Source: Prosopocoilus inquinatus (taxonomy: Eukaryota > Arthropoda > Insecta > Coleoptera > Lucanidae). Taken from it: a stretch of 64,000 bases of DNA. The position numbers were made by a program, and so were the translations under genes. Positions within the stretch are counted from its first letter, which is position 1. Every line of letters begins with the position of its first letter. The notes under the pieces were generated by a model, which was not told the origin of the DNA, did not search any database, and was given only the letters and a program-made list of their open reading frames with translations. The stretch lies in contig JAYKNF010000029.1 in NCBI GenBank assembly GCA_036172665.1, forward strand, positions 1-64,000, read 5' to 3'. Shown here in pieces: positions 1-64,000 of the stretch.

Positions 1-148
1 ACAACACGCATTAGCGTTGTTCCTGTGATGTTTCTAATCGATCCTTACTCATCTATCATGTTATTTGACGTTTGGATGAACTCCAGTAACCCTGACGTGA
101 TATACGAAGTTCTCGGACGCAGCAGAACCTGGAAATAGTTTTAAACGA

Positions 149-170
149 AACAACACGCATTAGCGTTGTT
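149..170. other. Imperfect dyad in the monomer (example copy)
   Basis: Arms AACAAC (149-154) and GTTGTT (165-170) are perfect reverse complements. Inside them, GC (157-158) and GC (163-164) can pair around a four-base ATTA loop, leaving a two-base AC bulge on the left side. The element recurs in nearly every monomer. The common alternative with T instead of C at 158 leaves the outer six-base arms intact. The hairpin is visible in sequence; whether it forms or binds a protein is unknown. Confidence 0.7.
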
Positions 171-299
171 CCTGTGATGTATCTAATCGATCCTTACTCA
201 TCTATCATGTTATTTGGCGTTTCGATGGACTCCAGTAGCTCTGATGTGAGATACGACGTTTTCTGAGGCAGCAGAAGCTGGAAATAGTTTTAAACGAAA
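151..299 (+). repeat. Example 149-bp satellite monomer (C subtype)
   Basis: A complete unit in the phase that starts at CAACACGCA. Landmarks in order are: a dyad around the phase start (149-170), an ATCGAT hexamer near 187-192, the stretch ending in ATGTTATTTG, the variable toggle GTTTCGATGG or GTTTGGATGG, the shared word CTCCAGTA followed by the main subtype-diagnostic bases, a CAGCAGAAGCTGG segment, and a TTTAAA hexamer near the end. Across the window the first half is conserved and most diagnostic variation lies in the second half. Confidence 0.95.
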
Positions 300-6437: not shown

Positions 6438-7969
6438 ATCTAATCGATCCTTACTCATCTATCATGTTATTTAACGTTTCGATGGACTCCAGTAACTCTA
6501 ATGTGAGATACGAAATTTTCGGACGCAGCAGAAGCTGGGAATAGTTTTAAACGAAACAACACGCATTAGCGTTGTTCCTGTGATGTATCTAATCGATCCT
6601 TACTTATCTATCATGTTATTTGACCTTTGGATGGACTCCAGTAACCCTGACGTGAGATACGAAGTTCTCGGACGCAGCAGAATCTGGAAATAGTTTTAAA
6701 CGAAACATCACGTATTAGCGTTGTTCCTGTTATGTATCTAATCGATCCTTACTCATCTATCATGTTATTTGAAGTTTGGATGGACTCCAGTAACTCTGAT
6801 GTGAGATACAAAGTTTTTGGACGCAGCAGAACCTGGAAATAGTTTTAAACGAAACAACACGCATTAGCGTTGTTCCTGTGATGTATCTAATCGATCCTTA
6901 CTCATCTATCATGTTATTTGGCGTTTCGATGGACTCCAGTAGCTCTGATGTGAGATACGACGTTTTCTGAGGCAGCAGAAGCTGGAAATAGTTTTAAACG
7001 AAACAACACGCATTAGCGTTGTTCCTGTGATGTATCTAATCGATCCTTACTCATCTATCATGTTATTTGGCGTTTCGATGGACTCCAGTAACTTTGATGT
7101 GAGATACGAAGTTCTCGGACGCAGCTGAAGCTAGAAATAGTTTTAAACGAAACAACACGCATTAGCGTTGTTACTGTGATGTATCTAATCGATCCTTACT
7201 CATCTATCATGTTATTTGACGTTTGGATGGACTCCAGTAACTCTGATGTGAGATACAAAGTTTTTGGACGCAGCAGAAGCTGGAAATAGTTTTGAACGAA
7301 ACAACACGTATTAGCGTTGTTCCTGTGATGTATCTAATCGATCCTTACTCATCTATCATGTTATTTGGCGTTTCGATGGACTCCAGTAACTTTGATGTGA
7401 GATACGAAGTTCTCGGACGCAGCTGAAGCTAGAAATAGTTTTAAACGAAACAACACGCATTAGCGTTGTTACTGTGATGTATCTAGTCGATCCTTACTCA
7501 TCTATCATGTTATTTGACGTTTGGATGGACTCCAGTAACTCTGATGTGAGATACAAAGTTTTTGGACGCAGCAGAAGCTGGAAATAGTTTTGAACGAAAC
7601 AACACGTATTAGCGTTGTTCCTGTGATGTATCTAAACGATCCTTACTTAGCTACTATGTTATTTGACGTTTGGATGGACTCCAGTAACTCTAATGTGAGA
7701 TACGAAATTTTCGGACGCAGCAGAAGCTGGAAATAGTTTTAAACGAAACAACACGCATTAGCATTTTTCCTGTGATGTATCTAATCGATCCTTACTCATC
7801 TATCATGTTATTTGGTGTTTCGATGGACTCCAGTAACCCTGACGTGAGATACGAAATTCTCGGACGCAGCAGAAGCTGGAAATAGTTTTAAACGAAACAA
7901 CACGTATTAGCGTTGTTCCTGTTATGTATCTAATCGATCCTTACTCATCTATCATGTTATTTGACGTTT
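6438..7969 (+). repeat. Mixed monomers between the L block and the 16-mer HOR
   Basis: About ten monomers with no long HOR period of their own. A D-A-B run begins it. At about 7040-7620 an E-B pair occurs twice in a row (298-bp period); both B members carry TTACTGTG in place of TTCCTGTG. The single-copy character suggests a transition zone. Boundaries are approximate. Confidence 0.65.
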
Positions 7970-10353
7970 CGATGGACTCCAGTAACTCTAATGTGAGATA
8001 CGAAATTTTCGGACGCAGCAGAAGCTGGAAATAGTTTTAAACGAAACAACACGCATTAGCGTTGTTCCTGTGATGTATCTAATCGATCCTTACTTATCTA
8101 TCATGTTATTTGACGTTTGGATGGACTCCAGTAACCCTGACGTGAGATACGAAATTCTCGGACGCAGCAGAAGCTGGAAATAGTTTTAAACGAAACAACA
8201 CGTATTAGCGTTGTTCCTGTTATGTATCTAATCGATCCTTACTCATCTATCATGTTATTTGACGTTTGGATGGACTCCAGTAACTCTGATGTGAGATACA
8301 AAGTTTTTGGACGCAGCAGAACCTGGAAATAATTTTAAACGAAACAACACGCATTAGCGTTGTTCCTGTGATGTATCTAATGGATCCTTACTCATCTATC
8401 ATGTTATTTGACGTTTGGATGGACTCCAGTAACTCTGATGAGAGACACAAAGATTTCGGACGCAGCAGAAGCTGGAAATAGTTTTGAACGAAACAACACG
8501 TATTAGCGTTGTTCCTGTGATGTATCTAATCGATCCTTACTCATCTATCATGTTATTTGACGTTTCGATGGACTCCAGTAACTCTAACGTGAGATACGAA
8601 ATTTTCGGACGCAGCAGAAGCTGGGAATAGTTTTAAACGAAACAACACGCATTAGCGTTGTTCCTGTGATGTATCTAATCGATCCTTACTTATCTATCAT
8701 GTTATTTCACGTTTGGATGGACTCCAGTAACCCTGACGTGAGATACGAAGTTCTCGGACGCAGCAGAAGCTGGAAATAGTTTTAAACGAAACAACACGTA
8801 TTAGCGTTGTTCCTGTTATGTATCTAATCGATCCTTACTCATCTATCATGTTATTTGACGTTTGGATGGACTCCAGTAACTCTGATGTGAGATACAAAGT
8901 TTTTGGACGCAGCAGAACCTGGAAATAGTTTTAAACCAAACAACACGCATTAGCGTTGTTCCTGTGTTGTATCTAATCGATCCTTACTCATCTATCATGT
9001 TATTTGGCGTTTCGATGGACTCCAGTAGCTCTGATGTGAGATACGACGTTTTCTGAGGCAGCAGAAGCTGGAAATAGTTTTAAACGAAACAACACGCATT
9101 AGCGTTGTTCCTGTGATGTATCTAATCGATCCTTACTCATCTGTCATGTTATTTGACGTTTCGATGGACTCCAGTAACTCTAATGTGAGAAACGAAATTT
9201 TCGGAAGCAGCAGAAGCTGGAAATAGTTTTAAACGAAACAACACGCATTAGCGTTGTTCCTGTGATGTATCTAACCGATCCTTACTTATCTATCATGTTA
9301 TTTGACGTTTGGATGGACTCCAGTAACCCTGACGTGAGATACGAAGTTCTGGGACGCAGCAGAACCTGGAAATAGTTTTAAACGAAACAGCGCGCATTAG
9401 CGTTGTTCCTGTGATGTATCTAATCGATCCTTACTCATCTATCATGTTATTTGGCGTTTCGATGGACTCCAGTAACTTAGATGTGAGATACGAAGTTCTC
9501 GGACGCAGCTGAAGCTAGAAATAGTTTTAAACGAGACAACACGCATTAGCGTTGTTCCTGTGATGTATCTAATCGATACTTACTCATCTATCATGTTATT
9601 TGACGTTTCGATGGACTCCAGTAACTCTAATGTGAGAAACGAAATTTTCGGACGCAGCAGAAGCTGGAAATAGTTTTAAACGAAACAACACGCATTAGCG
9701 TTGTTCCTGTGATGTATCTAATCGATCCTTACTCATCTAGCATGTTATTTGACGTTTGGATGGACTCCAGTAACTCTGATGTGAGATACAAAGTTTTTGG
9801 ACGCAGCAGAAGCTGGAAATAATTTTGAACGAAACAACACCTATTAGCGTTGTTCCTGTGATGTATCTAATCGATCCTTACTCATCTATCATGTTATTTG
9901 ACGTTTCGATGGACTCCAGTAACTCTAATGTGAGATACGAAATTTTCGGACGCAGCAGAAGCTGGAAATAGTTTTAAACGAAACAACACGCATTAGCGTT
10001 GTTCCTGTGATGTATCTAATCGATCCTTACTTATCTATCATGTTATTTGGCGTTTCGATGGACTCCAGTAAATCTGACGTGAGATACTAAGATCTCGGAC
10101 GCAGCAGAAGCTGGAAATAGTTTTAAACGAAACAACACGTATTAGCGTTGTTCCTGTGATGTATCTAATCGATCCTTACTCATCTATCATGTTATTTGAC
10201 GTTTCGATGGACTCCAGTAACTCTGATGTGAGATACAAAGTTTTTGGACGCAGCAGAAGCTTTAAATAGTTTTGAACGAAACAACACGTATTAGCGTTGT
10301 TCCTGTGATATATCTAATCGATCCTTACTCATCTATCATGTTATTTGACGTTT
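7970..10353 (+). repeat. 16-monomer HOR (2384 bp), copy 1
   Basis: Two independent marker pairs give the period. GTTATTTCAC occurs at 8701 and 11084, and the variant with CCTATTAGC occurs at 9840 and 12223. Both spacings are 2383 bp, which is 16 x 149 minus the one-base deletion near 10690. A monomer with GAAGCTTTAAATAG (about 10256) also marks this unit. Start and end are approximate because the unit is circularly permutable. Confidence 0.85.
8378..8390 (+). other. Monomer with GGATCC replacing the usual ATCGAT site
   Basis: The normal CTAATCGATCC reads CTAATGGATCC here, removing the conserved ATCGAT and creating a GGATCC hexamer. I noticed this substitution only here. Other monomers lose ATCGAT through different changes, such as CTAAACGATC, CTAATAGATC and CTAACCGATC. 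Confidence 0.75.
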
Positions 10354-12365
10354 CGATGAACTCCAGTAACTCTAATGTGAGATACGAAATTTTCGGACGC
10401 AGCAGAAGCTGGAAATAGTTTTAAACGAAACAACACGCATTAGCGTTGTTCCTGTGATGTATCTAATCGATCCTTACTTATCTATCATGTTATTTGACGT
10501 TTGGATGGACTCCAGTAACCCTGACGTGAGATACGAAATTCTCGGACGCAGCAGAAGCTGGAAATAGTTTTAAACGAAACAACACGTATTAGCGTTGTTC
10601 CTGTTATGTATCTAATCGATCCTTACTCATCTATCATGTTATTTGACGTTTGGATGGACTCCAGTAACTCTGATGTGAGATACAAAGTTTTGGACGCAGC
10701 AGAACCTGGAAATAATTTTAAACGAAACAACACGCATTAGCGTTGTTCCTGTGATGTATCTAATCGATCCTTACTCATCTATCATGTTATTTGACTTTTG
10801 GATGGACTCCAGTAACTCTGATGAGAGACACAAAGATTTCGGACGCAGCAGAAGCTGGAAATAGTTTTGAACGAAACAACACGTATTAGCGTTGTTCCTG
10901 TGATGTATCTAATCGATCCTTACTCATCTATCATGTTATTTGACGTTTCGATGGACTCCAGTAACTCTAATGTGAGATACGAAATTTTCGGACGCAGCAG
11001 AAACTGGGAATAGTTTTAAACGAAACAACACGCATTAGCGTTGTTCCTGTGATGTATCTAATCGATCCTTACTTATCTATCATGTTATTTCACGTTTGGA
11101 TGGACTCCAGTAACCCTGACGTGAGATACGAAGTTCTCGGACGCAGCAGAAGCTGGAAATAGTTTTAAACGAAACAACACGTATTAGCGTTGTTCCTGTT
11201 ATGTATCTAATCGATCCTTACTCATCTATCATGTTATTTGACGTTTGGATGGACTCCAGTAACTCTGATGTGAGATACAAAGTTTTTGGACGCAGCAGAA
11301 CCTGGAAATAGTTTTAAACGAAACAACACGCATTAGCGTTGTTCCTGTGATGTATCTAATCGATCCTTACTCATCTATCATGTTATTTGGCGTTTCGATG
11401 GACTCCAGTAGCTCTGATGTGAGATACGACGTTTTCTGAGGCAGCAGAAGCTGGAAATAGTTTTAAACGAAACAACACGCATTAGCGTTGTTCCTGTGAT
11501 GTATCTAATCGATCCTTACTCATCTATCATGTTATTTGACGTTTCGATGGACTCCAGTAACTCTAATGTGAGAAACGAAATTTTCGGAAGCAGCAGAAGC
11601 TGGAAATAGTTTTAAACGAAACAACACGCATTAGCGTTGTTCCTGTGATGTATCTAATCGATCCTTACTTATCTATCATGTTATTTGACGTTTGGATGAA
11701 CTCCAGTAACCCTGACGAGAGATACGAAGTTCTGGGACGCAGCAGAACCTGGAAATAGTTTTAAACGAAACAACGCGCATTAGCGTTGTTCCTGTGATGT
11801 ATCTAATCGATCCTTACTCATCTATCATGTTATTTGGCGTTTCGATGGACTCCAGTAACTTAGATGTGAGATACGAAGTTCTCGGACGCAGCTGAAGCTA
11901 GAAATAGTTTTAAACGAAACAACACGCATTAGCATTGTTCCTGTGATGTATCTAATCGATACTTACTCATCTATCATGTTATTTGACGTTTCGATGGACT
12001 CCAGTAACTCTAATGTGAGAAACGAAATTTTCGGACGCAGCAGAAGCTGGAAATAGTTTTAAACGAAACAACACGCATTATCGTTGTTCCTGTGATGTAT
12101 CTAATCGATCCTTACTCATCTAGCATGTTATTTGACGTTTGGATGGACTCCAGTAACTCTGATGTGAGATACAAAGTTTTTGGACGCAGCAGAAGCTGGA
12201 AATAATTTTGAACGAAACAACACCTATTAGCGTTGTTCCTGTGATGTATCTAATCGATCCTTACTCATCTATCATGTTATTTGACGTTTCGATGGACTCC
12301 AGTAACTCTAATGTGAGATACGAAATTTTCGGACGCAGCAGAAGCTGGAAATAGTTTTAAACGAA
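10354..12365 (+). repeat. 16-monomer HOR, copy 2 (partial)
   Basis: Colinear with copy 1 at a shift of 2384 bp, becoming 2383 after a one-base loss near 10690. It contains the GTTATTTCAC, CTGGGACGCAG and CCTATTAGC marker monomers in the same order. It breaks off after the CCTATTAGC monomer, where copy 1 has an AGTAAATCTGACG monomer and this copy passes into different sequence near 12366. Confidence 0.82.
10681..10700 (+). repeat. 148-bp monomer: T-run shortened
   Basis: AAAGTTTTGGACG stands where most B monomers read AAAGTTTTTGGACG. This single-base loss explains why adjacent 16-mer copies are 2383 rather than 2384 bp apart. Confidence 0.8.
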
Positions 12366-17430: not shown

Positions 17431-19524
17431 AAAAACACGCATTAGCGTTGTTCCTGTGATGTATCTAATCGATCCTTACTCATCTATCATGTTATTTGGC
17501 GTTTCGATGGACTCCAGTAACTTAGATGTGAGATACGAAGTTCTCGGACGCAGCTGAAGCTAGAAATAGTTTTAAACGAAACAACACGCATTAGCGTTGT
17601 TCCTGTGATGTATCTAATCGATACTTACTCATCTATCATGTTATTTGACGTTTCGATGGACTCCAGTAACTCTAATGTGAGAAACGAAATTTTCGGACGC
17701 AGCAGAAGCTGGAAATAGTTTTAAACGAAACAACACGCATTATCGTTGTTCCTGTGATGTATCTAATCGATCCTTACTCATCTAGCATGTTATTTGACGT
17801 TTGGATGGACTCCAGTAACTCTGATTTGAGATACAAAGTTTTTGGACGCAGCAGAAGCTGGAAATAATTTTGAACGAAACAACACCTATTAGCGTTGTTC
17901 CTGTGATGTATCTAATCGATCCTTACTCATCTATCATGTTATTTGACGTTTCGATGGACTCCAGTAACTCTAATGTGAGATACGAAGTTCTCGGACGCAG
18001 CTGAAGCTGGAAATAGTTTTAAACGAAACAACACGCATTAGCGTTGTTCCTGTGATGTATCTAATCGATCCTTACTTATCTATCATGTTATTTGACGTTT
18101 GGATGTACTCCAGTAACCCTGACGTGAAATACGAAGTTCTCGGACGCAGCAGAACCTGGAAATAGTTTTAAACGAAACAACACGCATTAGCGTTGTTCCT
18201 GTGATGTATCTAATCGATCCTTACTCATCTATCATGTTATTTGACGTTTGGATGGACTCCAGTAACCCTGACGTGAGATACGAAGTTCTCGGACGCAGCA
18301 GAAGCTGGAAATAGTTTTAAACGAAACAACACGCATTAGCGTTGTTCCTGTGATGTATCTAATCGATCCTTACTTATCTATCATGTTATTTGGCGTTTCG
18401 ATGGACTCCAGTAGCTCTGATGTGAGATACGACGTTTTTTGAGGCAGCAGAAGCTGGAAATAGTTTTAAACGAAACAACACGCATTAGCGTTGTTCCTGT
18501 GATGTATCTAATCGATCCTTACTCATCTATCATGTTATTTGGCGTTTCGATGGACTCCAGTAGCTCTGATGTGAGATACGACGTTTTCGGACGCAGCAGA
18601 AGCTGGAAATAGTTTTAAACGAAACAACACGTATTAGCGTTGTTCCTGTTATGTATCTAATCGATCCTTACTCATCTATCATGTTATTTGACGTTTGGAT
18701 GGACTCCAGTAACTCTGATGTGAGATACAAAGTTTTTGGACGCAGCAGAACCTGGAAATAGTTTTAAACGAAACAACACGCATTAGCGTTGTTCCTGTGA
18801 TGTATCTAATCGATCCTTACTCATCTATCATGTTATTTGACGTTTGGATGGACTCCAGTAACTCTGATGTGAGATACAAAGTTTTTGGACGCAGCAGAAC
18901 CTGGAAATAGTTTTAAACGAAAAAACACGCATTAGCGTTGTTCCTGTGATGTATCTAATCGATCCTTACTCATCTATCATGTTATTTGGCGTTTCGATGG
19001 ACTCCAGTAGCTCTGATGTGAGATACGACGTTTTCTGAGGCAGCAGAAGCTGGAAATAGTTTTAAACGAAACAACACGCATTAGCGTTGTTCCTGTGATG
19101 TATCTAATAGATCCTTACTCATCTATCATGTTATTTGACGTTTCGATGGACTCCAGTAACTCTAATGTGAGAAACGAAATTTTCGGAAGCAGCAGAAGCT
19201 GGAAATAATTTTAAACGAAACAACACGCATTAGCGTTGTTCCTGTGATGTATCTAATCGATCCTTACTTATCTATCATGTTATTTGACGTTTGGATGAAC
19301 TCCAGTAACCCTGACGTGAGATACGAAGTTCTGGGACGCAGCAGAACCTGGAAATAGTTTTAAACGAAACAACGCGCATTAGCGTTGTTCCTGTGATGTA
19401 TCTAATCGATCCTTACTCATCTATCATGTTATTTGGCGTTTCGATGGACTCCAGTAACTTAGATGTGAGATACGAAGTTCTCGGACGCAGCTGAAGCTAG
19501 AAATAGTTTTAAACGAAACAACAC
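17431..19524 (+). repeat. 13-monomer derivative HOR (1937 bp)
   Basis: CCTATTAGC occurs at 15948, 17885 and 19822, and CGTTTTTTGA at 18433 and 20370; each step is 1937 bp, or 13 x 149. The content is a subset of the 16-mer monomers plus the new C variant with CGTTTTTTGAGG. At the left edge, GAAAAAACACGC runs straight into an E-type monomer, whereas the same word near 18918 is followed by C, D and A monomers first. About three monomers are therefore missing at 17.43 kb. Confidence 0.8.
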
Positions 19525-20908: not shown

Positions 20909-20931
20909 ATCTATCATGTTATTTGACGTTT
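20909..20931 (+). repeat. Hybrid monomer junction in the 13-mer to 11-mer change
   Basis: A monomer with the CTAATAGATCC head of a D type continues with the GGATGAACTCC tail of the neighbouring A type. In the 13-mer these belong to two adjacent monomers near 19.1 and 19.25 kb. The exchange point lies in the identical stretch 20909-20931. Together with loss of one B monomer it turns the 13-mer into the 11-mer, and every later HOR copy that includes this part inherits it. Confidence 0.82.
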
Positions 20932-23744: not shown

Positions 23745-23768
23745 TCATGTTATTTGGGGTTCGATGGA
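23745..23768 (+). repeat. 148-bp monomer with GGGGTTCGATGG
   Basis: The usual TTGGCGTTTCGATGG reads TTGGGGTTCGATGG, with one base lost. The same form occurs near 30607, 45951 and 57125, marking HOR copies 1, 2, 5 and 6. It is absent from copies 3 and 4 because their deletions removed it. Confidence 0.88.
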
Positions 23769-24060
23769 CTCCAGTAACTTAGATGTGAGATACGAAGTTC
23801 TCGGACGCAGCTGAAGCTAGAAATAGTTTTAAACGAAACAACACGCATTAGCGTTGTTCCTGTGATGTATCTAATCGATCCTTACTCATCTATCATGTTA
23901 TTTGACGTTTCGATGGACTCCAGTAACTCTAATGTGAGAAACGAAATTTTCGGACGCAGCAGAAGCTGGAAATAGTTTTAAACGAAACAACACGCATTAG
24001 CGTTGTTCCTGTGATGTATCTAATCGATCCTTACTCATCTATCATATTATTTGGCGTTTC

Positions 24061-44700: not shown

Positions 44701-47700
44701 GCATTAGGGTTGTTACTGTGATGTATCTAATCGATCCTTACTTATCTATCATGTTATTTGACGTTTGGATGGACTCCAGTAAGTCTGATGTGAGATACAA
44801 AGTTTTTGGACGCAGCAGGAGCTGGAAATAGTTTTAAACGAAACAACACGTATTAGCGTTGTTCCTGTGCTGTATCTAATCGATCCTTACTCATATATCA
44901 TGTTATTTGGCGTTTCGATGGACTCCAGTAGCTTTGATGTGAGATACGACGTTTTCGGACGCAGCAGAAGCTGGAAATAGTTTTAAACGAAACAACACGT
45001 ATCAGCGTTGTTCCTGTGATGTATCTAATCGATCCTTACTCATCTATCATGTTATTTGACGTTTGGATGGACTCCAGTAACTCTGATGTGAGATACAAAG
45101 TTTTTGGACGCAGCAGAAGCTGGAAATAGTTTTGAACGAAACAACACGTATTAGCGTTGTTCCTGTGATGTATCTAATAGATCCTTACTTAGCTACTATG
45201 TTATTTGAAGTTTGGATGGACTCCAGTAACTCTAATGTGAGATACGAAATTTTCGGACGCAGCAGAAGCTGGAAATAGTTTTAAACGAAACAACACGCAT
45301 TAGCGTTGTTCCTGAGATGTATCTAATCGATCCTTACTTATCTGTCATGTTATTTGACGTTTAGATGGACTCCAGTAACCCTGACGTGAGATACAAAGTT
45401 CTCGGACGCAGCAGAAGCTGGAAATAGTTTTAAACGAAACAACACGCATTAGCATTGTTCCTGTGATGTATCTAATCGATCCTTACTTATCTATCATGTT
45501 ATTTGACGTTTGGATGGACTCCAGTAACCCTGACGTGAGATACGAAGTTCTCGGGCGCAGCAGAAGCTGGAAATAGTTTTAAACGAAACAACACGTATTA
45601 GCGTTGTTCCTGTGATGTATCTAATCGATCCTTACTCATCTATCATGTTATTTGACGTTTGGATGGACTCCAGTAACTCTGATGTGAGATACAAAGTTTT
45701 TGGACGCAGCAGAAGCTGGAAATAGTTTTGAACGAAAGAACACGAATTAGCGTTGTTCCTGTGATGTATCTAATCGATCCTTACTCATCTATCATGTTAT
45801 TTGGCGTTTCGATGGACTCCAGTAACTTTGATGTGAGATACGAAGTTCTCGGACGCAGCTGAAGCTGGAAATAGTTTTAAACGAAACAACACGCATTAGC
45901 GTTGTTCCTGTGATGTATCTAATCGATCCTTACTTATCTATCATGTTATTTGGGGTTCGATGGACTCCAGTAACTTAGATGTGAGATACGAAGTTCTCGG
46001 ACGCAGCTGAAGCTAGAAATAGTTTTAAACGAAACAACACGCATTAGCGTTGTTCCTGTGATGTATCTAATCGATCCTTACTCATCTATCATGTTATTTG
46101 ACGTTTCGATGGACTCCAGTAACTCTAATGTGAGAAACGAAATTTTCGGACGCAGCAGAAGCTGGAAATAGTTTTAAACGAAACAACACGCATTAGCGTT
46201 GTTCCTGTGATGTATCTAATCGATCCTTACTCATCTATCATATTATTTGGCGTTTCGATGGAATCCAGTAACTCTGATGTGAGATAAAAAGTTTTTTACG
46301 CAGCAGAAGCTGGAAATAGTTTTGAATGAAACAACACGTATTAGCGTTGTTCCTGTGATGTATCTAATCGATCCTTACTCATCTATCATGTTATTTGGCG
46401 TTTTGATGGACTCCAGTAACTTTGATGTGAGATACGAAGTTCTCGGACGCAGCTGAAGCTAGAAATAGTTTTAAACGAAACAACACGCATTAGCGTTGTT
46501 ACTGTGATGTATCTAATCGATCCTTACTTATCTATCATGTTATTTGACGTTTGGATGGACTCCAGTTAGTCTGATGTGAGATACAATGTTTTTGGACGCA
46601 GCAGGAGCTGGAAATAGTTTTAAACGAAACAACACGTATTAGCGTTGTTCCTGTGCTGTATCTAATCGATCCTTACTCATATATCATGTTATTTGGCGTT
46701 TCGATGGACTCCAGTAGCTCTGATGTGAGATACGACGTTTTCGGACGCAGCAGAAGCTGGAAATAGTTTTTAACGAAACAACACGTATTAGCGTTGTTCC
46801 TGTGCTGTATCTAATCGATCCTTACTCATCTATCATGTTATTTGACGTTTCGATGGACTCCAGTAACTCTAATGTGAGATACGAAATTTTCGGACGTAGC
46901 AGAAGCTGGAAATAGTTTTAAACGAAACAACACGCATTAGCGTTGTTCCTGTGATGTATCTAATCGATCCTTACTTATCTATCATGTTATTTGACGTTTG
47001 GATGGACTCCAGTAACCCTGACGTGATATACGAAGTTCTCGGACGCAGCAGAAGCTGGAAATAATTTTAAACGAAACAACACGTATTAGCGTTGTTCCTG
47101 TGATGTATCTAATCGATCCTTACTCATCTATCATGTTATTTGACGTTTGGATGGACTCCAGTAACTCTGATGTGAGATACAAAGTTTTTGGACGCAGCAG
47201 AAGCTGGAAATAGTTTTGAACGAAACAACACGTATTAGCGTTGTTCCTGTGATGTATCTAATCGATACTTACTCATCTATCATGTTATTTGGCGTTTCGA
47301 TGGACTCCAGTAACTTTGATGTGAGATACGAAGTTCTCGGACGCAGCTGAAGCTGGAAATAGTTTTAAATGAAACAACACGTATTAGCGTTGTTCCTGTG
47401 ATGTATCTAAACGATCCTTACTTATCTAACATGTTATTTGACGTTTGGATGGACTCCAGTAAGTCTGATGTGAGATACAAAGTTTTTGGACGCAGCAGGA
47501 GCTGGAAATAGTTTTGAACGAAACAACACGTATTAGCGTTGTTCCTGTGATGTATCTAATCGATCCTTACTCATCTATCATGTTATTTGGCGTTTCGATG
47601 GACTCCAGTAGCTCTGATGTGAGATACGACGTTTTCGGACGCAGCAGAAGCTGGAAATAGTTTTAAACGAAACAACACGTGTTAGCGTTGTTCCTGTGAT

Positions 47701-48572
47701 GTATCTAATCGATCCTTACTCATCTATCATGTTATTTGACGTTTGGATGGACTCCAGTAACCCTGACGTGAGATACGAAGTTCTCGGACGCAGCAGAAGC
47801 TGGAAATAGTTTTAAACGAAACAACACGTATTAGCGTTGTTCCTGTGATGTATCTAATCGATCCTTACTCATCTATGATGTTATTTGACGTTTAGATGGA
47901 CTCCAGTAACTCTGATGTGAGATACGAAATTTTCGGACGCAGCAGAAGCTGGAAATAGTTTTGAACGAAACAACACGTATTAGCGTTGTTACTGTGATGT
48001 ATCTAATCGATCCTTACATATCTATCATGTTATTTGACGTTTGGATGGACTCCAGTAACTCTGATGTGAGATACAAAGTTTTTGGACGCAGCAGAAGCTG
48101 GAAATAGTTTTGAACGAAACAACACGTATTAGCGTTGTTACTGTGATGTATCTAATCGATCCTTACTTATCTATCATGTTATTTGACGTTTGGATGGACT
48201 CCAGTAAGTCTGATGTGAGATACAAAGTTTTTGGACGCAGCAGGAGCTGGAAATAGTTTTAAACGAAACAACACGTATTAGCGTTGTTCCTGTGATGTAT
48301 CTAATCGATCCTGACTCATCTATCAAGTTATTTGACGTTTGGATGGACTCCAGTAACTCTGATGTGAGATACAAAGTTTTTGGACGCAGCAGAAGCTGGA
48401 AATAGTTTTGAACGAAACAACACGTATTAGCGTTGTTCCTGTGATGTATCTAATCGATCCTTACTCATCTATCATGTTATTTGACGTTTGGATGGACTCC
48501 AGTAACTCTGATGTGAGATACAAAGTTTTTGGACGCAGCAGAAGCTGGAAATAGTTTTGAACGAAACAACAC
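41721..48572 (+). repeat. 46-monomer HOR, copy 5 (full length)
   Basis: Markers recur in the copy 1 positions: CGTTTTTTGA at 42566 and 44205, the GGGGTTCG monomer at 45951 and GATGGAATCC at 46257. At about 47948 and 47977 it has the common bases AAATAGTTTTG and GCGTTGTTACT, where copies 1-4 have AAATACTTTTG and GCGTCGTTACT. At 48573 a new type of monomer follows, so regular tandem repetition ends here. Confidence 0.92.
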
Positions 48573-49013
48573 GTATTAGCGTTGTTCCTGTGATGTATCT
48601 AATCGATCCTTACTTAGCTACTATGTTATTTGACGTTTGGATGGACTCCAGTAACTCTAATGTGAGATACGAAATTTTCGGACGCAGCAGAAGCTGGAAA
48701 TAGTTTTAAACGAAACAACACGCATTAGCGTTGTTCCTGTAATGTATCTAATCGATCCTTACTCATCTATCATGATATTTGACGTTTGGATGGACTCCAG
48801 TAACTCTGATGTGAGATACAAAGTCTTTGGACGCAGCAGAAGCTGGAAATAGTTTTGAACGAAACAACACGTATTAGCGTTGTTCCTGTGATGTATCTAA
48901 TCGATCCTTACTCATCTATCATGTTATTTGACGTTTGGATGGACTCCAGTAACTCTGATGTGAGATACAATGTTTTTGGACGCAGCAGGAGCTGGAAATA
49001 GTTTGAAACGAAA
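46630..49013 (+). repeat. 16-monomer tandem duplication, left copy (2384 bp)
   Basis: The last part of HOR copy 5 plus three foreign monomers (about 48.57-49.0 kb, including one with TTAGCTACTATG) form a unit repeated once. The CCTGACTCATC monomer tag recurs exactly 2384 bp later, as does ACGTATTTTCG (49018 and 51402). It has the same length as the older 16-mer at 8-12 kb but different content. Confidence 0.85.
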
Positions 49014-51397
49014 CAACACGTATTTTCGTTCTTCCTGTGCTGTATCTAATCGATCCTTACTCATATATCATGTTATTTGGCGTTTCGATGGACTCCAGTA
49101 GCTCTGATGTGAGATACGACGTTTTCGGACGCAGCAGAAGCTGGAAATAGTTTTTAACGAAACAACACGTATTAGCGTTGTTCCTGTGCTGTATCTAATC
49201 GATCCTTACTCATCTATCATGTTATTTGACGTTTCGATGGACTCCAGTAACTCTAATGTGAGATACGAAATTTTCGGACGTAGCAGAAGCTGGAAATAGT
49301 TTTAAACGAAACAACACGCATTAGCGTTGTTCCTGTGATGTATCTAATCGATCCTTACTTATCTATCATGTTATTTGACGTTTGGATGGACTCCAGTAAC
49401 CCTGACGTGATATACGAAGTTCTCGGACGCAGCAGAAGCTGGAAATAATTTTAAACGAAACAACACGTATTAGCGTTGTTCCTGTGATGTATCTAATCGA
49501 TCCTTACTCATCTATCATGTTATTTGACGTTTGGATGGACTCCAGTAACTCTGATGTGAGATACAAAGTTTTTGGACGCAGCAGAAGCTGGAAATAGTTT
49601 TGAACGAAACAACACGTATTAGCGTTGTTCCTGTGATGTATCTAATCGATACTTACTCATCTATCATGTTATTTGGCGTTTCGATGGACTCCAGTAACTT
49701 TGATGTGAGATACGAAGTTCTCGGACGCAGCTGAAGCTGGAAATAGTTTTAAATGAAACAACACGTATTAGCGTTGTTCCTGTGATGTATCTAAACGATC
49801 CTTACTTATCTAACATGTTATTTGACGTTTGGATGGACTCCAGTAAGTCTGATGTGAGATACAAAGTTTTTGGACGCAGCAGGAGCTGGAAATAGTTTTG
49901 AACGAAACAACACGTATTAGCGTTGTTCCTGTGATGTATCTAATCGATCCTTACTCATCTATCATGTTATTTGGCGTTTCGATGGACTCCAGTAGCTCTG
50001 ATGTGAGATACGACGTTTTCGGACGCAGCAGAAGCTGGAAATAGTTTTAAACGAAACAACACGTGTTAGCGTTGTTCCTGTGATGTATCTAATCGATCCT
50101 TACTCATCTATCATGTTATTTGACGTTTGGATGGACTCCAGTAACCCTGACGTGAGATACGAAGTTCTCGGACGCAGCAGAAGCTGGAAATAGTTTTAAA
50201 CGAAACAACACGTATTAGCGTTGTTCCTGTGATGTATCTAATCGATCCTTACTCATCTATGATGTTATTTGACGTTTAGATGGACTCCAGTAACTCTGAT
50301 GTGAGATACGAAATTTTCGGACGCAGCAGAAGCTGGAAATAGTTTTGAACGAAACAACACGTATTAGCGTTGTTACTGTGATGTATCTAATCGATCCTTA
50401 CATATCTATCATGTTATTTGACGTTTGGATGGACTCCAGTAACTCTGATGTGAGATACAAAGTTTTTGGACGCAGCAGAAGCTGGAAATAGTTTTGAACG
50501 AAACAACACGTATTAGCGTTGTTACTGTGATGTATCTAATCGATCCTTACTTATCTATCATGTTATTTGACGTTTGGATGGACTCCAGTAAGTCTGATGT
50601 GAGATACAAAGTTTTTGGACGCAGCAGGAGCTGGAAATAGTTTTAAACGAAACAACACGTATTAGCGTTGTTCCTGTGATGTATCTAATCGATCCTGACT
50701 CATCTATCAAGTTATTTGACGTTTGGATGGACTCCAGTAACTCTGATGTGAGATACAAAGTTTTTGGACGCAGCAGAAGCTGGAAATAGTTTTGAACGAA
50801 ACAACACGTATTAGCGTTGTTCCTGTGATGTATCTAATCGATCCTTACTCATCTATCATGTTATTTGACGTTTGGATGGACTCCAGTAACTCTGATGTGA
50901 GATACAAAGTTTTTGGACGCAGCAGAAGCTGGAAATAGTTTTGAACGAAACAACACGTATTAGCGTTGTTCCTGTGATGTATCTAATCGATCCTTACTTA
51001 GCTACTATGTTATTTGACGTTTGGATGGACTCCAGTAACTCTAATGTGAGATACGAAATTTTCGGACGCAGCAGAAGCTGGAAATAGTTTTAAACGAAAC
51101 AACACGCATTAGCGTTGTTCCTGTAATGTATCTAATCGATCCTTACTCATCTATCATGATATTTGACGTTTGGATGGACTCCAGTAACTCTGATGTGAGA
51201 TACAAAGTCTTTGGACGCAGCAGAAGCTGGAAATAGTTTTGAACGAAACAACACGTATTAGCGTTGTTCCTGTGATGTATCTAATCGATCCTTACTCATC
51301 TATCATGTTATTTGACGTTTGGATGGACTCCAGTAACTCTGATGTGAGATACAATGTTTTTGGACGCAGCAGGAGCTGGAAATAGTTTGAAACGAAA
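49014..51397 (+). repeat. 16-monomer tandem duplication, right copy
   Basis: Colinear with 46630-49013. It begins with a monomer carrying TATTTTCGTTCTTCC, and the same form begins the next sequence at 51402. It repeats the copy-5 state at the AAATAGTTTTG and GCGTTGTTACT sites, confirming that it was made from copy 5 rather than copies 1-4. Confidence 0.85.
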
Positions 51398-53372
51398 CAA
51401 CACGTATTTTCGTTCTTCCTGTGCTGTATCTAATCGATCCTTACTCATATATCATGTTATTTGGCGTTTCGATGGACTCCAGTAGCTCTGATGTGAGATA
51501 CGACGTTTTCGGACGCAGCAGAAGCTGGAAATAGTTTTAAACGAAACAACACGTATTAGCGTTGTTTCTGTGATGTATCTAATCGATCCTTACTCATCTA
51601 TCATGTTATTTGACGTTTCGATGGACTCCAGTAACTCTAATGTGAGATACGAAATTTTCGGACGCAGCAGAAGCTGGAAATAGTTTTAAACGAAACAACA
51701 CGCATTAGCGTTGTTCCTGTGATGTATCTAATCGATCCTTACTTATCTATCATGTTATTTGACGTTTGGATGGACTCCAGTAACCCTGACGTGAGATACG
51801 AAGTTCTCGGACGCAGCAGAAGCTGGAAATAGTTTTAAACGAAACAACACGTATTAGCGTTGTTCCTGTGATGTATCTAATCGATCCTTACTCATGTATC
51901 ATGTTATTTGGCGTTTCGATGAACTCCAGTAACTTTGATGTGAGATACGAAGTTCTCGGACGCAGCTGAAGCTAGAAATAGTTTCAAACGAAACAACACG
52001 CATTAGCGTTGTTACTGTGATGTATCTAATCGATCCTTATTTATCTATCATGTTATTTGACGTTTGGATGGACTCCAGTAAGTCTGATGTGAGATACAAA
52101 GTTTTTGGACGCAGCAGGAGCTGGAAATAGTTTTAAACGAAACAACACGTATTAGCGTTGTTCCTGTGCTGTATCTAAATCTATCCTTACTCATCTATCA
52201 TGTTATTTGACGTTTCGATGGACTCCAGTAACTCTAATGTGAGATACGAAATTTTCGGACGCAGCAGAAGCTGGAAATAGTTTTAAACGAAACAACACGC
52301 ATTAGCGTTGTTCCTGTGATGTATCTAATCGATCCTTACTTATCTATCATGTTATTTGACGTTTGGATGGGCTCCAGTAACCCTGACGTGAGATACGAAG
52401 TTCTCGGACGCAGCAGAAGCTGGAAATAGTTTTAAACGAAACAACACGCATTAGCGTTGTTCCTGTGATGTATCTAATCGATCCTTACTTATCTATCATG
52501 TTATTTGACGTTTGGATGGACTCCAGTAACCCTGACGTGAGATACGAAGTTCTCGGACGCAGCAGAAGCTGGAAATAGTTTTAAACGAAACAACACGTAT
52601 TAGCGTTGTTCCTGTGATGTATCTAATCGATCCTTACTCATCTATCATGTTATTTGACGTTTGGATGGACTTCAGTAACTCTGATGTGAGATACAAAGTT
52701 TTTGGACGCAGCAGAAGCTGGAAATAGTTTTGAACGAAACAACACGTATTAGCGTTGTTCCTGTGATGTATCTAATCGATCCTTACTCATCTATCATGTT
52801 ATTTGGCGTTTCGATGGACTCCAGTAACTTTGATGTGAGATACGAAGTTCTCGGACGCAGCTGAAGCTAGAAATAGTTTCAAACGAAACAACACGCATTA
52901 GCGTTGTTACTGTGATGTATCTAATCGATCCTTATTTATCTATCATGTTATTTGACGTTTGGATGGACTCCAGTAAGTCTGATGTGAGATACAAAGTTTT
53001 TGGACGCAGCAGGAGCTGGAAATAGTTTTAAACGAAACAACACGTATTAGCGTTGTTCCTGTGCTGTATCTAATCGATCCTTACTCATCTATCATGTTAC
53101 TTGACGTTTCGATGGACTCCAGTAACTCTAATGTGAGATAAGAAATTTTCGGACGCAGCAGAAGCTGGAAATAGTTTTAAACGAAACAACACGCATTAGC
53201 GTTGTTCCTGTGATGTATCTAATCGATCCTTACTCATCTATCATGTTATTTGACGTTTGGATGGACTCCAGTAACTTTGATGTGAAATACGAAGTTCTCG
53301 GACGCAGCTGAAGCTGGAAATAGTTTTAAATGAAACAACACGTATTAGCGTTGTTCCTGTGATGTATCTAAA
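51398..53372 (+). repeat. L-like insert between HOR copies
   Basis: From about 52.2 kb this is colinear with about 2.2-3.3 kb at a constant shift of 50057 bp: TGGGCTCCAG at 2311 and 52368, and TGATGTGAAA at 3221 and 53278. An E-F stretch with GTTTCAAACG occurs twice inside it, near 51.98 and 52.87 kb, six monomers apart. The left part is not colinear with the L block. Confidence 0.8.
52171..52190 (+). repeat. 150-bp monomer: one-base insertion
   Basis: CTAAATCTATCC replaces CTAATCGATCC, adding one base and destroying the ATCGAT hexamer. It is the only insertion-bearing monomer I found; all other length variants are deletions. Confidence 0.8.
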
Positions 53373-59185: not shown

Positions 59186-60032
59186 CCTTACTCATCTATC
59201 ATGTTATTTGACGTTTGGATGGACTCCAGTAACTCTGATGTGAGATGTCTTTGGACGCAGCAGAAGCTGGAAATAGTTTTAAACGAAACAACACGCATTG
59301 GCGTTGTTCCTGTGATGTATCTAATCGATCCTTACTCATCTATCATGTTATTTGACGTTTCGATGGACTCCAGTAACTCTAATGTGAGATACGAAATTTT
59401 CGGACGCAGCAGAAGCTGGAAATAGTTTTAAACGAAACAACACGCATTAGCGTTGTTCCTGTGATGTATCTAATCGATCCTTACTCATCTATCATGTTAT
59501 TTGGCGTTTGCATGGACTCCAGTAACCCTGACGTGAGATACGAAGTTCTCGGATGCAGCAGAAGCTGGAAATAGTTTTAAACGAAACAACACGCATTAGC
59601 GTTGTTCCTGTGATGTATCTAATCGATCCTTACTCATCTATCATGTTATTTGGCGTTTCGATGGACTCCAGTAACTTTGATGTGAGATACGAAGTTCTCG
59701 GACGCAGCTGAAGCTGGAAATAGTTTTAAATGAAACAACACGTATTAGCGTCGTTCCTGTGATGTATCTAAGCGATCCTTACTTATCTAACATGTTATTT
59801 GACGTTTGGATGGACTCCAGTAAGTCTGATGTGAGATACAAAGTTTTTGGACGCAGCAGGAGCTGGAAATAGTTTTAAACGAAACAACACGTATTAGCGT
59901 TGTTCCTGTGCTGTATCTAATCGATCCTTACACATATATCATGTTATTTGGCGTTTCGATGGACTCCAGTAGCTCTGATGTGAGATACGACGTTTTCGGA
60001 CGCAGCAGAAGCTGGAAATAGTTTTAAACGAA
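59186..60032 (+). repeat. L-type monomers following HOR copy 6
   Basis: About six monomers. The last three resemble 4.16-4.62 kb: both have an AGCGTCGTTCC monomer followed by one with CTTACACATAT, 55414 bp apart. That is the same shift as for the sequence that follows, so colinearity with the L block begins before 60033. Confidence 0.75.
59240..59258 (+). repeat. 144-bp monomer: five-base deletion
   Basis: GTGAGATGTCTTTGG stands where relatives read GTGAGATACAAAGTCTTTGG (for example near 62665). This is the largest indel within a monomer in the window. It shifts the local reading frame and creates a chance 96-codon open frame. Confidence 0.85.
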
Positions 60033-62154
60033 ACAACACGCATTAGCGTTGTTCCTGTGATGTTTCTAATCGATCCTTACTCATCTATCATGTTATTTGA
60101 CGTTTGGATGAACTCCAGTAACCCTGACGTGAGATACGAAGTTCTCGGACGCAGCAGAACCTGGAAATAGTTTTAAACGAAAAAACACGCATTAGCGTTG
60201 TTCCTGTGATGTATCTAATCGATCCTTACTCATCTATCATGTTATTTGGCGTTTCGATGGACTCCAGTAGCTCTGATGTGAGATACGACGTTTTCTGAGG
60301 CAGCAGAAGCTGGAAATAGTTTTAAACGAAACAACACGCATTAGCGTTGTTCCTGTGATGTATCTAATCGATCCTTACTCATCTATCATGTTATTTGACG
60401 TTTCGATGGACTCCAGTAACTCTAATGTGAGAAACGAAATTTTCGGACGCAGCAGAAGCTGGAAATAGTTTTAAACGAAACAACACGCATTAGCGTTGTT
60501 CCTGTGATATATCTAATCGATCCTTACTTATCTATCATGTTATTTGACATTTGGATGGACTCCAGTAACCCTGACGTGAGATACGAAGTTCTCGGACGCA
60601 GCAGAACCTGGAAATAGTTTTAAACGAAACAACACGCACTAGCGTTGTTCCTGTGATGTATCTAATCGATCCTTACTTATCTATCATGTTATTTGACATT
60701 TGGATGGACTCCAGTAACTTAGATGTGAGATACGATTTTCTCGGACGCAGCTGAAGCTAGAAATAGTTTTAAACGAAACAACACGCATTAGCGATGTTCC
60801 TGCGTAGTATCTAATCGATCCTTACTTATCTATCATGTTATTTGACATTTCGATGGACTCCAGTAGCTCTGATGTGATATACGACGTTTTCGGACGCAGC
60901 AGCAGCTGGAAATAGTTTTAAACGAAACAACACATATTAGCGTTGTTCCTGTGATGTATCTAATCGATCCTTACTCATCTATCATGTTATTTGACGTTTG
61001 GACGGACTCCAGTAACCCTGATGTGATATACAAAGTTATCGGACGCAGCAGAAGCTGGAAATAGTTTTGAACGAAACAACACGTATTAGCGTTGTTCCTG
61101 TGCTGTATCTAATCGATCCATACTTATCTATCATGTTATTTGACGTTACGATGGACTCCAGTAACTCTGATGTGAGATACGACGTTTTCGGACGCAGCAG
61201 AAGCTGGAAATAGTTTTAAACGAAACAACACGTATTAGCGTTGTTCCTGTGATGTATCTAATCGATCCTTACTCATCTATCATGTTATTTGACGTTTGGA
61301 TGGACTCCAGTAACTCTGATGAGAGACACAAAGATTTCGGACGCAGCAGAAGCTGGAAATAGTTTTGAACGAAACAACACGTATTAGCGTTGTTCCTGTG
61401 ATGTATCTAATCGATCCTTACTCATCTATCATGTTATTTGACGTTTGGATGAACTCCAGTAACTCTGATGAGAGGCACAAAGATTTCGGACGCAGCAGAA
61501 GCTGGAAATAGTTTTAAACGAAACAACACGTATTAGCGTTTTTCCTGTGCTGTATCTAGTCGATCCCTACTCATATATCATGCTACTTGGCGTTTCGATG
61601 GACTCCAGTACCTCTGATGTGAGATACGACGTTTTCGGACGCAGCAGAAGCTGGAAATAGTTTTAAATGAAACAACACGTATTAGCGTTGTTCCTGTGAT
61701 GTATCTAATCGATCCTTACTCATCTATCATGTTATTTGGCGTTTCGATGGACTCCAGTAGCTCTGATGTGAGATACGACGTTTTCTGAGGCAGCAGAAGC
61801 TGGAAATAGTTTTAAAAGAAACAACACGCATTAGCGTTGTTCCTGTGATGTATCTAATCGATCCTTACTCATCTATCATGTTATTTGACGTTTCGATGGA
61901 CTCCAGTAACCCTGACGTGAGATACGAAGTTCTAGGACGCAGCAGAACCTGGAAATAGTTTTAAACGAAACAACACCCATTAGCGTTGTTCCTGTGATGT
62001 ATCTAATCGATCCTTACTCATCTATCATGTTATTTGGCGTTTCGATGGACTCCAGTAACTTTGATGTGAGATACGAAGTTCTCGGACGCAGCTGAAGCTG
62101 GAAATAGTTTTAAATGAAACAACACGTATTAGCGTTGTTCCTGTGATGTATCTA
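60033..62154 (+). repeat. L block, copy 3 (partial)
   Basis: The L landmarks reappear in order: TGTTTCT, TGCGTAGTATC, the two G-type monomers, TAAAAGAAAC near 61814 and ACCCATTAGC at 61975. The last two belong only to copy 1, so this segment pairs with copy 1. Relative to copy 1, one E-type monomer is missing near 61.66 kb, changing the shift from 60032 to 59884. Colinearity ends near 62154. Confidence 0.88.
60670..60712 (+). repeat. Conversion-like patch in an L monomer
   Basis: This monomer has the diagnostic tail of its L counterparts (AACTTAGATGTG), but its middle reads TTACTTATC and TTGACATTTGG like the monomer just upstream, instead of TTACTCATC and TTGGCGTTTCG as at about 640-675 and 5260-5290. 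Four linked differences change together while the flanks and monomer count stay unchanged. Confidence 0.72.
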
Positions 62155-64000
62155 AACGATCCCTACTTATCTAACATGTTATTTGACGTTTGGATGGACT
62201 CCAGTAACCCTGACGTGAGATACGAAGTTCTCGGACGCAGCAGAAGCTGGAAATAGTTTTAAACGAAACAACACGTATTAGCGTTGTTCCTGTGATGTAT
62301 CTAATCGATCCTTACTCATCTATCATGTTATTTGACGTTTGGATGGACTCCAGTAACTCTGATGTGAGATACAGTCTTTGGACGCAGCAGAAGCTGGAAA
62401 TAGTTTTGAACGAAACAACACGTATTAGCGTTGTTCCTGTGATGTATCTAATCGATCCTTACTTAGCTACTATGTTATTTGACGTTTCGATGGACTCCAG
62501 TAACTCTAATGTGAGATACGAAATTTTCGGACGCAGCAGAAGCTGGAAATAGTTTTAAACGAAACAACACGCATTAGCGTTGTTCCTGTGATGTATCTAA
62601 CCGATCCTTACTCATCTATCATGTTATTTGACGTTTGGATGGACTCCAGTAACTCTGATGTGAGATACAAAGTCTTTGGACGCAGCAGAAGCTGGAAATA
62701 GTTTTGAACGAAACAACACGTATTAGCGTTGTTCCTGTGATGTATCTAATCGATCCTTACTCATCTATCATGTTATTTGACGTTTGGATGGACTCCAGTA
62801 ACCCTGACGTGAGATACGAAGTTCGCGGACGCAGCAGAAGCTGGAAATAGTATTAAACGAAACAACACGCATTAGCGTTGTTCCTGTGATGTATCTAATC
62901 GATCCTTACTCATCTATCATGTTATTTGACGTTTGGATGGACTCCAGTAACTCTGATGTGAGATACAAAGTCTTTGGACGCAGCAGAAGCTGGAAATAGT
63001 TTTGAACGAAACAACACGTATTAGCGTTGTTCCTGTGCTGTATCTAATCGATCCTTACTCATATATCATGTTATTTGGCGTTTCGATGGACTCCAGTAGC
63101 TCTGATGTGAGATACGACGTTTTCGGACGCAGCAGAAGCTGGAAATAGTTTTAAACGAAACAACACGTATTAGCGTTGTTCCTGTGATGTATCTAATCGA
63201 TCCTTACTCATCTATCATGTTATTTGACGTTTCGATGGACTCCAGTAACTCTAATGTGAGATACGAAATTTTCGGACGCAGCAGAAGCTGGAAATAGTTT
63301 TAAACGAAACAACACGCATTAGCGTTGTTCCTGTGATGTATCTAATCGATCCTTACTTATCTATCATGTTATTTGACGTTTGGATGGACTCCAGTAACCC
63401 TGACGTGAGATACGAAGTTCTCGGACGCAGCAGAAGCTGGAAATAGTTTTAAACGAAACAACACGTATTAGCGTTGTTCCTGTGATGTATCTAATCGATC
63501 CTTACTCATCTATCATGTTATTTGACGTTTGGATGGACTCCAGTAACTCTGATGTGAGATACAAAGTTTTTGGACGCAGCAGAAGCTGGAAATAGTTTTG
63601 AACGAAACAACACGTATTAGCGTTGTTCCTGTGATGTATCTAATCGATCCTTACTTAGCTACTATGTTATTTGACGTTTCGATGGACTCCAGTAACTCTA
63701 ATGTGAGATACGAAATTTTCGGACGCAGCAGAAGCTGGAAATAGTTTTAAACGAAACAACACGCATTAGCGTTGTTCCTGTGATGTATCTAATCGATCCT
63801 TACTCACCTATCATGTTATTTGGCGTTTGGATGGACTCCAGTAACCCTGACGTGAGATACGAAGTTCTCGGAGGCAGCAGAAGCTGGAAATAGTTTTAAA
63901 CGAAACAACACGTATTAGCGTTGTTCCTGTGATGTATCTAATCGATCCTTACTCATCTATCATGTTATTTGGCGTTTCGATGGACTCCAGTATCTCTGAT
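62155..64000 (+). repeat. Right-edge mixed monomers
   Basis: About twelve monomers with no HOR period visible in the window. The first resembles the CTAAACGATC monomer at 3311. A C-D-A-B run occurs at about 63.0-63.6 kb, followed by D and A. Some monomers carry private changes (GTTCGCGGACG near 62822, GGAGGCAGCAG near 63870). The array continues past the window end. Confidence 0.75.
62364..62382 (+). repeat. 147-bp monomer: two-base deletion
   Basis: GAGATACAGTCTTTGG replaces GAGATACAAAGTCTTTGG. Like the five-base deletion near 59245, it lies just before the GTCTTTGG variant and creates a chance 86-codon open frame. Confidence 0.83.

What the first reader, a model, noticed from the sequence alone, without database searches (positions are those of the whole stretch)
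1..64000. Unassigned 149-bp satellite with several HOR generations in one window
The entire window is one satellite family, yet it holds at least five distinct HOR periods (6, 13, 16, 31 and 46 monomers), including a unit of 6852 bp. A 46-monomer HOR is long compared with well-known examples such as human alpha satellite units, commonly reported up to a few tens of monomers. I do not recognise the family, so it may be undescribed; absence from databases is not something I can show.
Basis: partly seen in the sequence, partly recalled or inferred. Interest (0 to 1): 0.75.

Follow-up and report, generated by a model that had tools for sequence, protein, structure and literature searches.

The report
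Stag beetle centromere-like satellite DNA array
The window is a piece of the main repetitive DNA of a stag beetle genome, a 149-letter unit copied hundreds of thousands of times, and it keeps a readable record of how such arrays grow and shrink by copying and deleting blocks of whole units.

Summary
The window is one head-to-tail array of 430 monomers, 415 of them exactly 149 bp. Units of 46 (6852 bp), 31, 16 and 13 monomers are real; a 6-mer is not found.

The generations need re-reading. A young 46-mer has in-register deletion forms (26, 31) and a 16-monomer edge duplication; copies are 99.8-100% identical. An older 31-mer (98.8-99.5%) flanks it. Three diagnostic junction monomers are zero-mismatch hybrids of the expected parents, which indicates homologous exchange between misaligned monomers.

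The 650-Mb genome is a stag beetle's (Lucaninae by COX1). A 33-base piece hits 473,708 times, about 71 Mb or 11%. In point samples it fills one internal interval on each of two chromosomes, with a shared consensus but largely chromosome-restricted variants. A second copy of the segment about 270 kb away has fewer units.

This is probably an undescribed (peri)centromeric satellite that behaves like primate alpha satellite: a new member of a known kind. Its unit length is no record; 52- to 84-mers are published.

The parts
1..64000 (+). Single head-to-tail array of a 149-bp satellite, 430 monomers (the last partial); it is bases 1-64000 of the 367,202-bp contig C29
1..6406 (+). Older 31-mer HOR ('V'): one full unit 1-4618 and part of the next, 4619-6406; 99.45% over 11 monomers, 98.75% over 14
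7897..12365 (+). Older 16-mer, about 1.9 units, 99.1% identical, content different from the later 16-monomer block
17432..20709 (+). 13-mer, about 1.7 units, 99.7%; U1-U11 of the young unit is an 11-monomer form of it
19518..26369 (+). Young HOR unit U, copy c1 (46 monomers)
26370..33221 (+). U copy c2 (46 monomers, 6852 bp)
33222..37095 (+). U copy c3, 26-mer: U1-U15 joined to U36-U46 (20 monomers fewer); junction monomer 35457-35605 is a U16/U36 hybrid
37096..41713 (+). U copy c4, 31-mer: U1-U14 joined to U30-U46 (15 monomers fewer); the junction falls in a stretch where the exchanged monomers are identical (within 39033-39330)
41714..48565 (+). U copy c5 (46 monomers)
46778..51545 (+). Edge duplication: a 16-monomer block (U35-U46 plus 4 flank monomers) twice in tandem; junction monomer 49013-49161 is a flank/U34 hybrid
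50950..53334 (+). 16-monomer flank F16, partly of 31-mer-type monomers; 16 of 16 monomers identical to F16 of the second segment of C29
53335..59143 (+). U copy c7 (U4-U42, 39 monomers); its first monomer 53335-53483 is a hybrid of old-31-mer V23 and U4
59586..62118 (+). Return of the older 31-mer HOR to the right of the young block, 99.0-99.2% to the left copy

Best explanation
The window is part of the main, probably pericentromeric or centromeric, satellite of a stag beetle (Lucanidae: Lucaninae). The array evolves by repeated in-register homologous exchange between misaligned monomers (unequal sister-chromatid exchange or break-induced replication), which duplicates or removes blocks of one to several tens of whole monomers. 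Successive exchanges produced a 31-mer HOR, then, inside it, a 46-mer HOR with 26- and 31-monomer deletion forms and a 16-monomer edge duplication; point mutation is slow by comparison. Exchange is mostly within a chromosome, so the two chromosomes sampled keep largely separate pools of monomer variants around one shared consensus. Shown here: the block map, the hybrid junctions, the flanking older layer, the genome share, one internal interval on each of two chromosomes, and largely separate variant pools. Inferred: the exchange pathway, the order of events, and centromere or heterochromatin function.
For: Monomer register is kept (415 of 430 exactly 149 bp). The four U-array junctions examined (U16|U36, U14/15|U29/30, F4|U34, V23|U4) are explained with 0 mismatches. 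For the three with a diagnostic hybrid monomer, 0 of 165 other distinct monomers fit the same parents, and random triples fit in 18 of 20,000. U copies differ by 0-8 bases per overlap; c2, c3 and c4 differ by 0-1, c1 and c5 from c2 by 3 and 2, c7 from c2 by 6 (small numbers, no test made). The older 31-mer lies on both sides. A second segment on the same contig (C29:270000-319999) has 91% of its length in blocks of at least 10 monomers shared with C29:1-84000. It holds U46, U46, F16, U4-46, F16 where the window has 46, 46, 26, 31, 46, a 16-monomer edge duplication, F16 and 39. Satellite share: 473,708 hits of a 33-mer with <=2 mismatches, 0 for the reversed control. C1: satellite in 5 of 20 point samples, all at 24.2-28 Mb; C2: 3 of 20, all at 43-47 Mb. 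Variants: 0% of window monomers have exact twins in the two C1 samples and the C22 sample, 6-11% in four C2 samples, while 11 sample consensuses differ by 1-2 of 149.
Against: No reads, CENP-A ChIP or FISH, so centromere function is not shown. C29 is an unplaced contig: its first 3040 bp equal the reverse complement of the start of C18 at 100%, and the near-identical second segment could be an allele misjoined into one contig. Only 2 of at least 10 contigs longer than 4 Mb were sampled for block position; the points were set more densely near known hits, and a 1.4-kb patch of the satellite lies outside the main interval at C1:22.11 Mb. Variant pools are not fully separate: C1 and C2 samples share 0-6% exact twins, and the C1 samples are small (19 and 46 monomers). 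Linkage among variable sites inside monomers falls only weakly with distance (r = -0.19; 54 of 5000 permutations as low), so short-tract conversion is neither shown nor excluded. Monomer 397 carries a 5-bp deletion right after c7 and may mark a non-homologous event.
Confidence: 0.8

Rival explanations
1. Part of the HOR map is an assembly artefact: collapsed or duplicated graph paths, or two haplotypes joined in contig C29, mimic recent block duplications.
For: C29 is unplaced, begins inside satellite, and overlaps C18 by 3040 bp at 100%; a near-identical segment lies about 270 kb further on.
Against: Several different junctions with their own hybrid monomers; U copies carry private differences; the V23|U4 hybrid and F16 recur identically in the second segment; duplicated blocks also occur in samples from C2, C22 and C96.
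Confidence: 0.15
2. Ordinary heterochromatic satellite with no centromere role; HORs are only a by-product of unequal exchange.
For: HORs need no selection; no CENP-B-box match in the consensus (best 3 mismatches of the 9 specified bases); a small patch lies outside the main block on C1.
Against: In 40 point samples on C1 and C2 it occurs only in one internal interval each; the first 10 kb of C3 and C5 carry telomere-like and other tandem repeats and none of this satellite.
Confidence: 0.25
3. Relative of the Trypanosoma brucei centromere repeat CIR147 (about 147-149 bp, 59-62% AT).
For: Similar unit length and AT content (PMC1868937, section 9); a shared 10-mer with a printed 50-bp CIR147 probe (shuffle frequency 0.0095); 11 of 15 with one TALE target (0.026).
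Against: The other printed TALE target fits no better than shuffles (9 of 15; 0.87); local alignment is not significant (0.15-0.19; 0.15); no sub-repeats in our monomer; the genome is a stag beetle's.
Confidence: 0.01

Closest known systems
Primate alpha satellite HOR arrays (171-bp monomer)
   Same: Tandem monomers of similar length; long near-identical HOR units with deletion variants; older layers at the edges; variant sets largely restricted to a chromosome
   Different: 149-bp monomer of another host; monomers within the unit are 93.2% identical; unit counts in the window are low; no centromere protein data
'Cascading' HORs (orangutan 58-mer, human 11-mer; PMC12428378, PMC12385485, abstracts)
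   Same: Monomer types recur inside the unit: the 46-mer here has 37 distinct monomers at exact identity and 35 types at <=1 difference
   Different: 5 contiguous units plus partial copies here against 67 copies in the orangutan array
HORs derived by repeated monomer deletion on human chromosome 5 (PMC11062924, passages)
   Same: New shorter units by loss of whole monomers, mixed with relic ancestral HORs
   Different: Those units have 4 and 6 monomers, from a 10-mer, and make up large arrays
Beetle satellites with HORs, such as Tribolium castaneum (recalled, not checked)
   Same: Major satellite of a beetle
   Different: Different sequence and unit length as recalled; no comparison run

Membership tests
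Satellite DNA with higher-order repeats | Multimonomer units repeat in tandem with much higher identity than monomers within the unit | tested here: met
   46-mer copies c1, c2, c4 and c5 are 99.93-100% identical over shared monomers; monomers within the unit 93.2%
Satellite DNA with higher-order repeats | Homogenised array of many unit copies | tested here: inconclusive
   5 contiguous U units plus partial copies here, 2 more units plus a partial one in C29:294908-317400; about 223 kb of C29 was not read
Regional centromere satellite | Megabase block at one internal place of a chromosome | tested here: met
   For C1 and C2 only: 5 of 20 and 3 of 20 point samples, neighbouring ones, besides a 1.4-kb patch at C1:22.11 Mb; other chromosomes not sampled
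Regional centromere satellite | Occupied by CENP-A nucleosomes | not testable with these tools
   No ChIP data
Primate alpha satellite | 171-bp monomer of the alphoid family in a primate | tested here: not met
   149 bp; beetle host; no alignment to alphoid sequence was run
CENP-B-bound satellite | NTTCGNNNNANNCGGGN box (motif recalled) | tested here: not met
   Best match in the consensus has 3 mismatches of 9 specified bases; single monomers were not scanned
Trypanosoma CIR147 | At least 90% identity to the repeat, 48/30-bp sub-repeats, trypanosome host | tested here: not met
   only printed fragments of CIR147 were compared

The most novel reading that the evidence does not exclude
A stag beetle has evolved, independently of primates, centromere arrays with the full alpha-satellite style: one consensus across chromosomes, largely chromosome-restricted variant pools, long cascading HOR units (46- and 59-mer) with deletion forms, and new layers born inside older ones. 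Near-identical paralogous segments with different unit counts would let the rate of block exchange be measured against point mutation.
Probability: 0.35. Interest if true: 0.55.

Novelty: new member of a known kind. Interest (0 to 1): 0.38.

Why it matters
Satellites that make up a tenth of a genome are seldom read at monomer level outside primates and a few plants (my own knowledge). Here two segments of one contig, 99.96% identical over their long shared blocks (22 differences in about 396 monomers), differ by whole-monomer blocks with mapped hybrid junctions. Steps of HOR birth and loss can therefore be read directly in a beetle and compared with primates, which bears on whether long HORs are a general product of unequal exchange or something special to alpha satellite.

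Tried and rejected
Trypanosome CIR147: suggested by unit length and AT content and tested with printed fragments. The match was not convincing, and the idea was dropped when COX1 named the host. Coral marker MA-TEL (149 bp, PMC12355185, passages): its sequence is in a supplement that could not be read; dropped for the same reason. A 6-mer HOR: not found. CENP-B box: none in the consensus. Internal sub-repeats of the monomer: none (score 13 against a shuffle mean of 14.1). CpG decay: at low-frequency sites C>T is 0.0119 at CpG and 0.0122 elsewhere, G>A 0.0111 and 0.0150; over all sites C>T is 0.0402 and 0.0503 but G>A 0.0469 and 0.0293; CpG o/e 1.33. So there is no consistent sign of CpG methylation mutation. 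Rfam on the window: 0 hits. ORFs >=150 aa: 0. Phage records with window 1-1000: none. Conserved 23- and 26-base patterns in prokaryote and viral contigs: none. Single 20-mer hits in two viral contigs and one bacterial contig: TRF finds no tandem repeat in L001 and L003, and none is seen in 301 bases of L002 around its hit; taken as chance. A first BLAST comparison of the two C29 segments printed no rows with its filters and was replaced by monomer painting. Whether other chromosomes carry the same blocks: not finished, the searches did not complete.

Papers, what was seen: abstract and outline of PMC12428378, PMC12385485, PMC11276891, PMC11034957, PMC3292466; passages of PMC12355185, PMC4053949, PMC11062924, PMC2820488, PMC12975129, PMC3447711, PMC4162612, PMC8443799, PMC8178753; passages and section 9 of PMC1868937.
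Full report
What is there. The 64 kb are one uninterrupted head-to-tail array (TRF period 149, 429.6 copies). Wrap-around alignment gives 430 monomers; 415 are exactly 149 bp, 11 are 148, one of 144 carries a 5-bp deletion, and the last is partial. Mean pairwise identity is 93.1% and 1067 pairs of the 429 full monomers are identical. There are no ORFs of 150 aa or more and no Rfam hits at gathering thresholds.

HOR map. Labelling monomers by sequence type and mapping them to the first 46-mer shows a young array at 19518-51545: units of 46, 46, 26, 31 and 46 monomers, then a 16-monomer edge duplication. The 26-mer is U1-15+U36-46 and the 31-mer is U1-14+U30-46, so both read as deletion forms of the 46-mer. 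The copies are 99.8-100% identical over shared monomers. A 39-monomer copy, c7 (U4-U42), follows at 53335-59143 behind a 16-monomer flank. An older 31-mer HOR lies to the left (1-6406) and returns to the right (59586-62118); shared blocks are 98.8-99.5% identical. Between the left 31-mer and the young array lie an old 16-mer, a 13-mer and a 16-monomer block repeated at lag 41, with 98.9-99.7% identity. Painting the window from itself takes 50 segments, against 310 and 314 for two shuffled monomer orders.

Mechanism. The junctions examined are in register. Monomer 238 is U16 on the left and U36 on the right, with the switch at bp 50-100; monomer 329 is flank F4 and then U34; monomer 358 is old-31-mer V23 and then U4, with the switch at bp 38-55. 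Each fits with 0 mismatches, no other distinct monomer of 165 fits the same parents, and random triples fit in 18 of 20,000. The fourth junction (262/263) lies where the exchanged monomers are identical. This is what homologous exchange between misaligned monomers leaves. Copies c2, c3 and c4 in the middle differ by 0-1 bases, c1 and c5 differ from c2 by 3 and 2, and c7 by 6, which suggests that the youngest copies lie inside; the numbers are small. Whether the exchange was crossover or break-induced replication cannot be told from sequence; PMC11034957 (abstract) reports RAD52- and PIF1-dependent change of human arrays.

A before-and-after pair. The same contig holds a second segment (C29:270000-319999), of which 91% lies in blocks of at least 10 monomers shared with C29:1-84000. 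It has two U units (294908-308611), F16, U4-46 and F16 again, that is, a 59-monomer period; F16 and the V23|U4 hybrid are identical to the window's. Painted from this segment, the window shows 22 base differences over the ten blocks of 3 monomers or more within monomers 0-398 (about 396 monomers; some parts of the source are used more than once), while the rest of the window is painted only at 98.6-99.8%. Whole-monomer blocks differ: three more U units, the edge duplication and one monomer near monomer 26 in the window, and about 22 monomers plus 1 monomer extra in the other segment. Both U units of the second segment carry the c5-type variants at U42 and U43. Caveat: the two segments may be alleles misjoined in one unplaced contig. 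A third, partial U block lies at C29:64001-84000.

Genome and host. The genome search was answered from then on, with interruptions. The assembly has 649.6 Mb in 173 contigs; the window is the start of C29 (367,202 bp). A 33-base piece of the monomer with up to 2 mismatches hits 272,282 + 201,426 times, and 0 times when reversed; at 149 bp each that is about 70.6 Mb, 10.9% of the genome. Point samples of 400 bp, set more densely near known hits, meet the satellite only at 24.2-28 Mb of C1 (5 of 20; C1 is 75.7 Mb) and 43-47 Mb of C2 (3 of 20; C2 is 72.4 Mb). Longer samples add satellite at C1:23.56 and 23.80 Mb, a 1.4-kb patch at C1:22.11 Mb, and full coverage at four places of C2 from 43.99 to 46.80 Mb. 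Strand switches inside both blocks. An 18S rRNA gene lies about 5 kb from the satellite at C1:23.56 Mb (L013). C3 and C5 begin with CCCAA (TTGGG) telomere-like repeats. A COX1 copy on C6, read with the invertebrate mitochondrial code, is 98% identical over 97% to a UniRef cluster named Lucaninae; the next four named by a stag beetle genus, 94-95%, are Ceruchus, Sinodendron, Aegus and Nigidius (120 of 7998 scored candidates listed). The species may be Prosopocoilus inquinatus, whose assembly I recall at about 649.7 Mb with N50 59.5 Mb; that is recall only (one search confirms only the taxonomy).

Largely chromosome-restricted variants. Consensuses of 11 samples differ from the window's by 1-2 of 149, yet window monomers have exact twins in 0% (C1, C22), 6-11% (C2), 13-22% (C96, C18) and 21-62% (later C29) of cases; C1 and C2 samples share 0-6% among themselves. 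The 1-1000 block matches only C2, C18, C29 and C96 among the 57 listed matches (40 of 3342 candidates scored). The U unit scores above 95% only in C29 (5 of 6905 candidates scored). C29 is therefore probably an unplaced piece of the C2 array or its allele (inference).

Known or new. HORs are widespread (76 of 171 species with Sanger data; PMC4053949, passages). Units longer than 46 are published: 52-mer in human (PMC12385485), 58- and 84-mer (PMC12428378) and 59-mer (PMC11276891) in orangutan, all from abstracts. Deletion-derived HORs intermixed with relic ones are described for human chromosome 5 (PMC11062924, passages). The closest behaviour is thus alpha satellite. The sequence family was not found by seven paper searches aimed at it, none of which named the host, so 'undescribed' is likely but not shown.

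Noticed in passing
window 1-3040 and C18:1-3040 (L022): The start of C18 (1.47 Mb) equals the reverse complement of the window's first 3040 bases at 100%; the contigs overlap end to end, so the window's left edge is an assembly break.
   Followed up: partly
L024 1-1196, L025 42-996 (starts of C3 and C5): Telomere-like (TTGGG)n at contig starts, followed by 32-, 12- and 33-bp tandem repeats in the same order at both; no exact (TTAGG)6 in the genome.
   Followed up: partly
L013 1-1694 (C1:23.558 Mb): 18S rRNA gene and further tandem repeats about 5 kb from satellite on C1.
   Followed up: no
L072 (C6:31.28 Mb) and further COX1 matches: 42 matches to the COX1 family in nuclear contigs; the locus of the best one has three long frames (ND2-, COX1- and COX2-like by my reading) open under the mitochondrial code.
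   Followed up: partly
L021 (C22:150000-159999): Satellite with nearly the same consensus but no exact monomer twins in the window or the C2 samples, and its own 24-, 33- and 41-monomer lags.
   Followed up: partly
window 59144-59287 (monomer 397): The only monomer with a 5-bp deletion lies exactly at the right end of copy c7; it may mark a different kind of break.
   Followed up: no
window consensus positions 9, 50, 68, 74, 106, 112, 114, 143: A few sites carry common alternative bases, with strong linkage between some pairs (89/108, 91/96, 92/124) and all four combinations at 94 of 153 pairs.
   Followed up: partly
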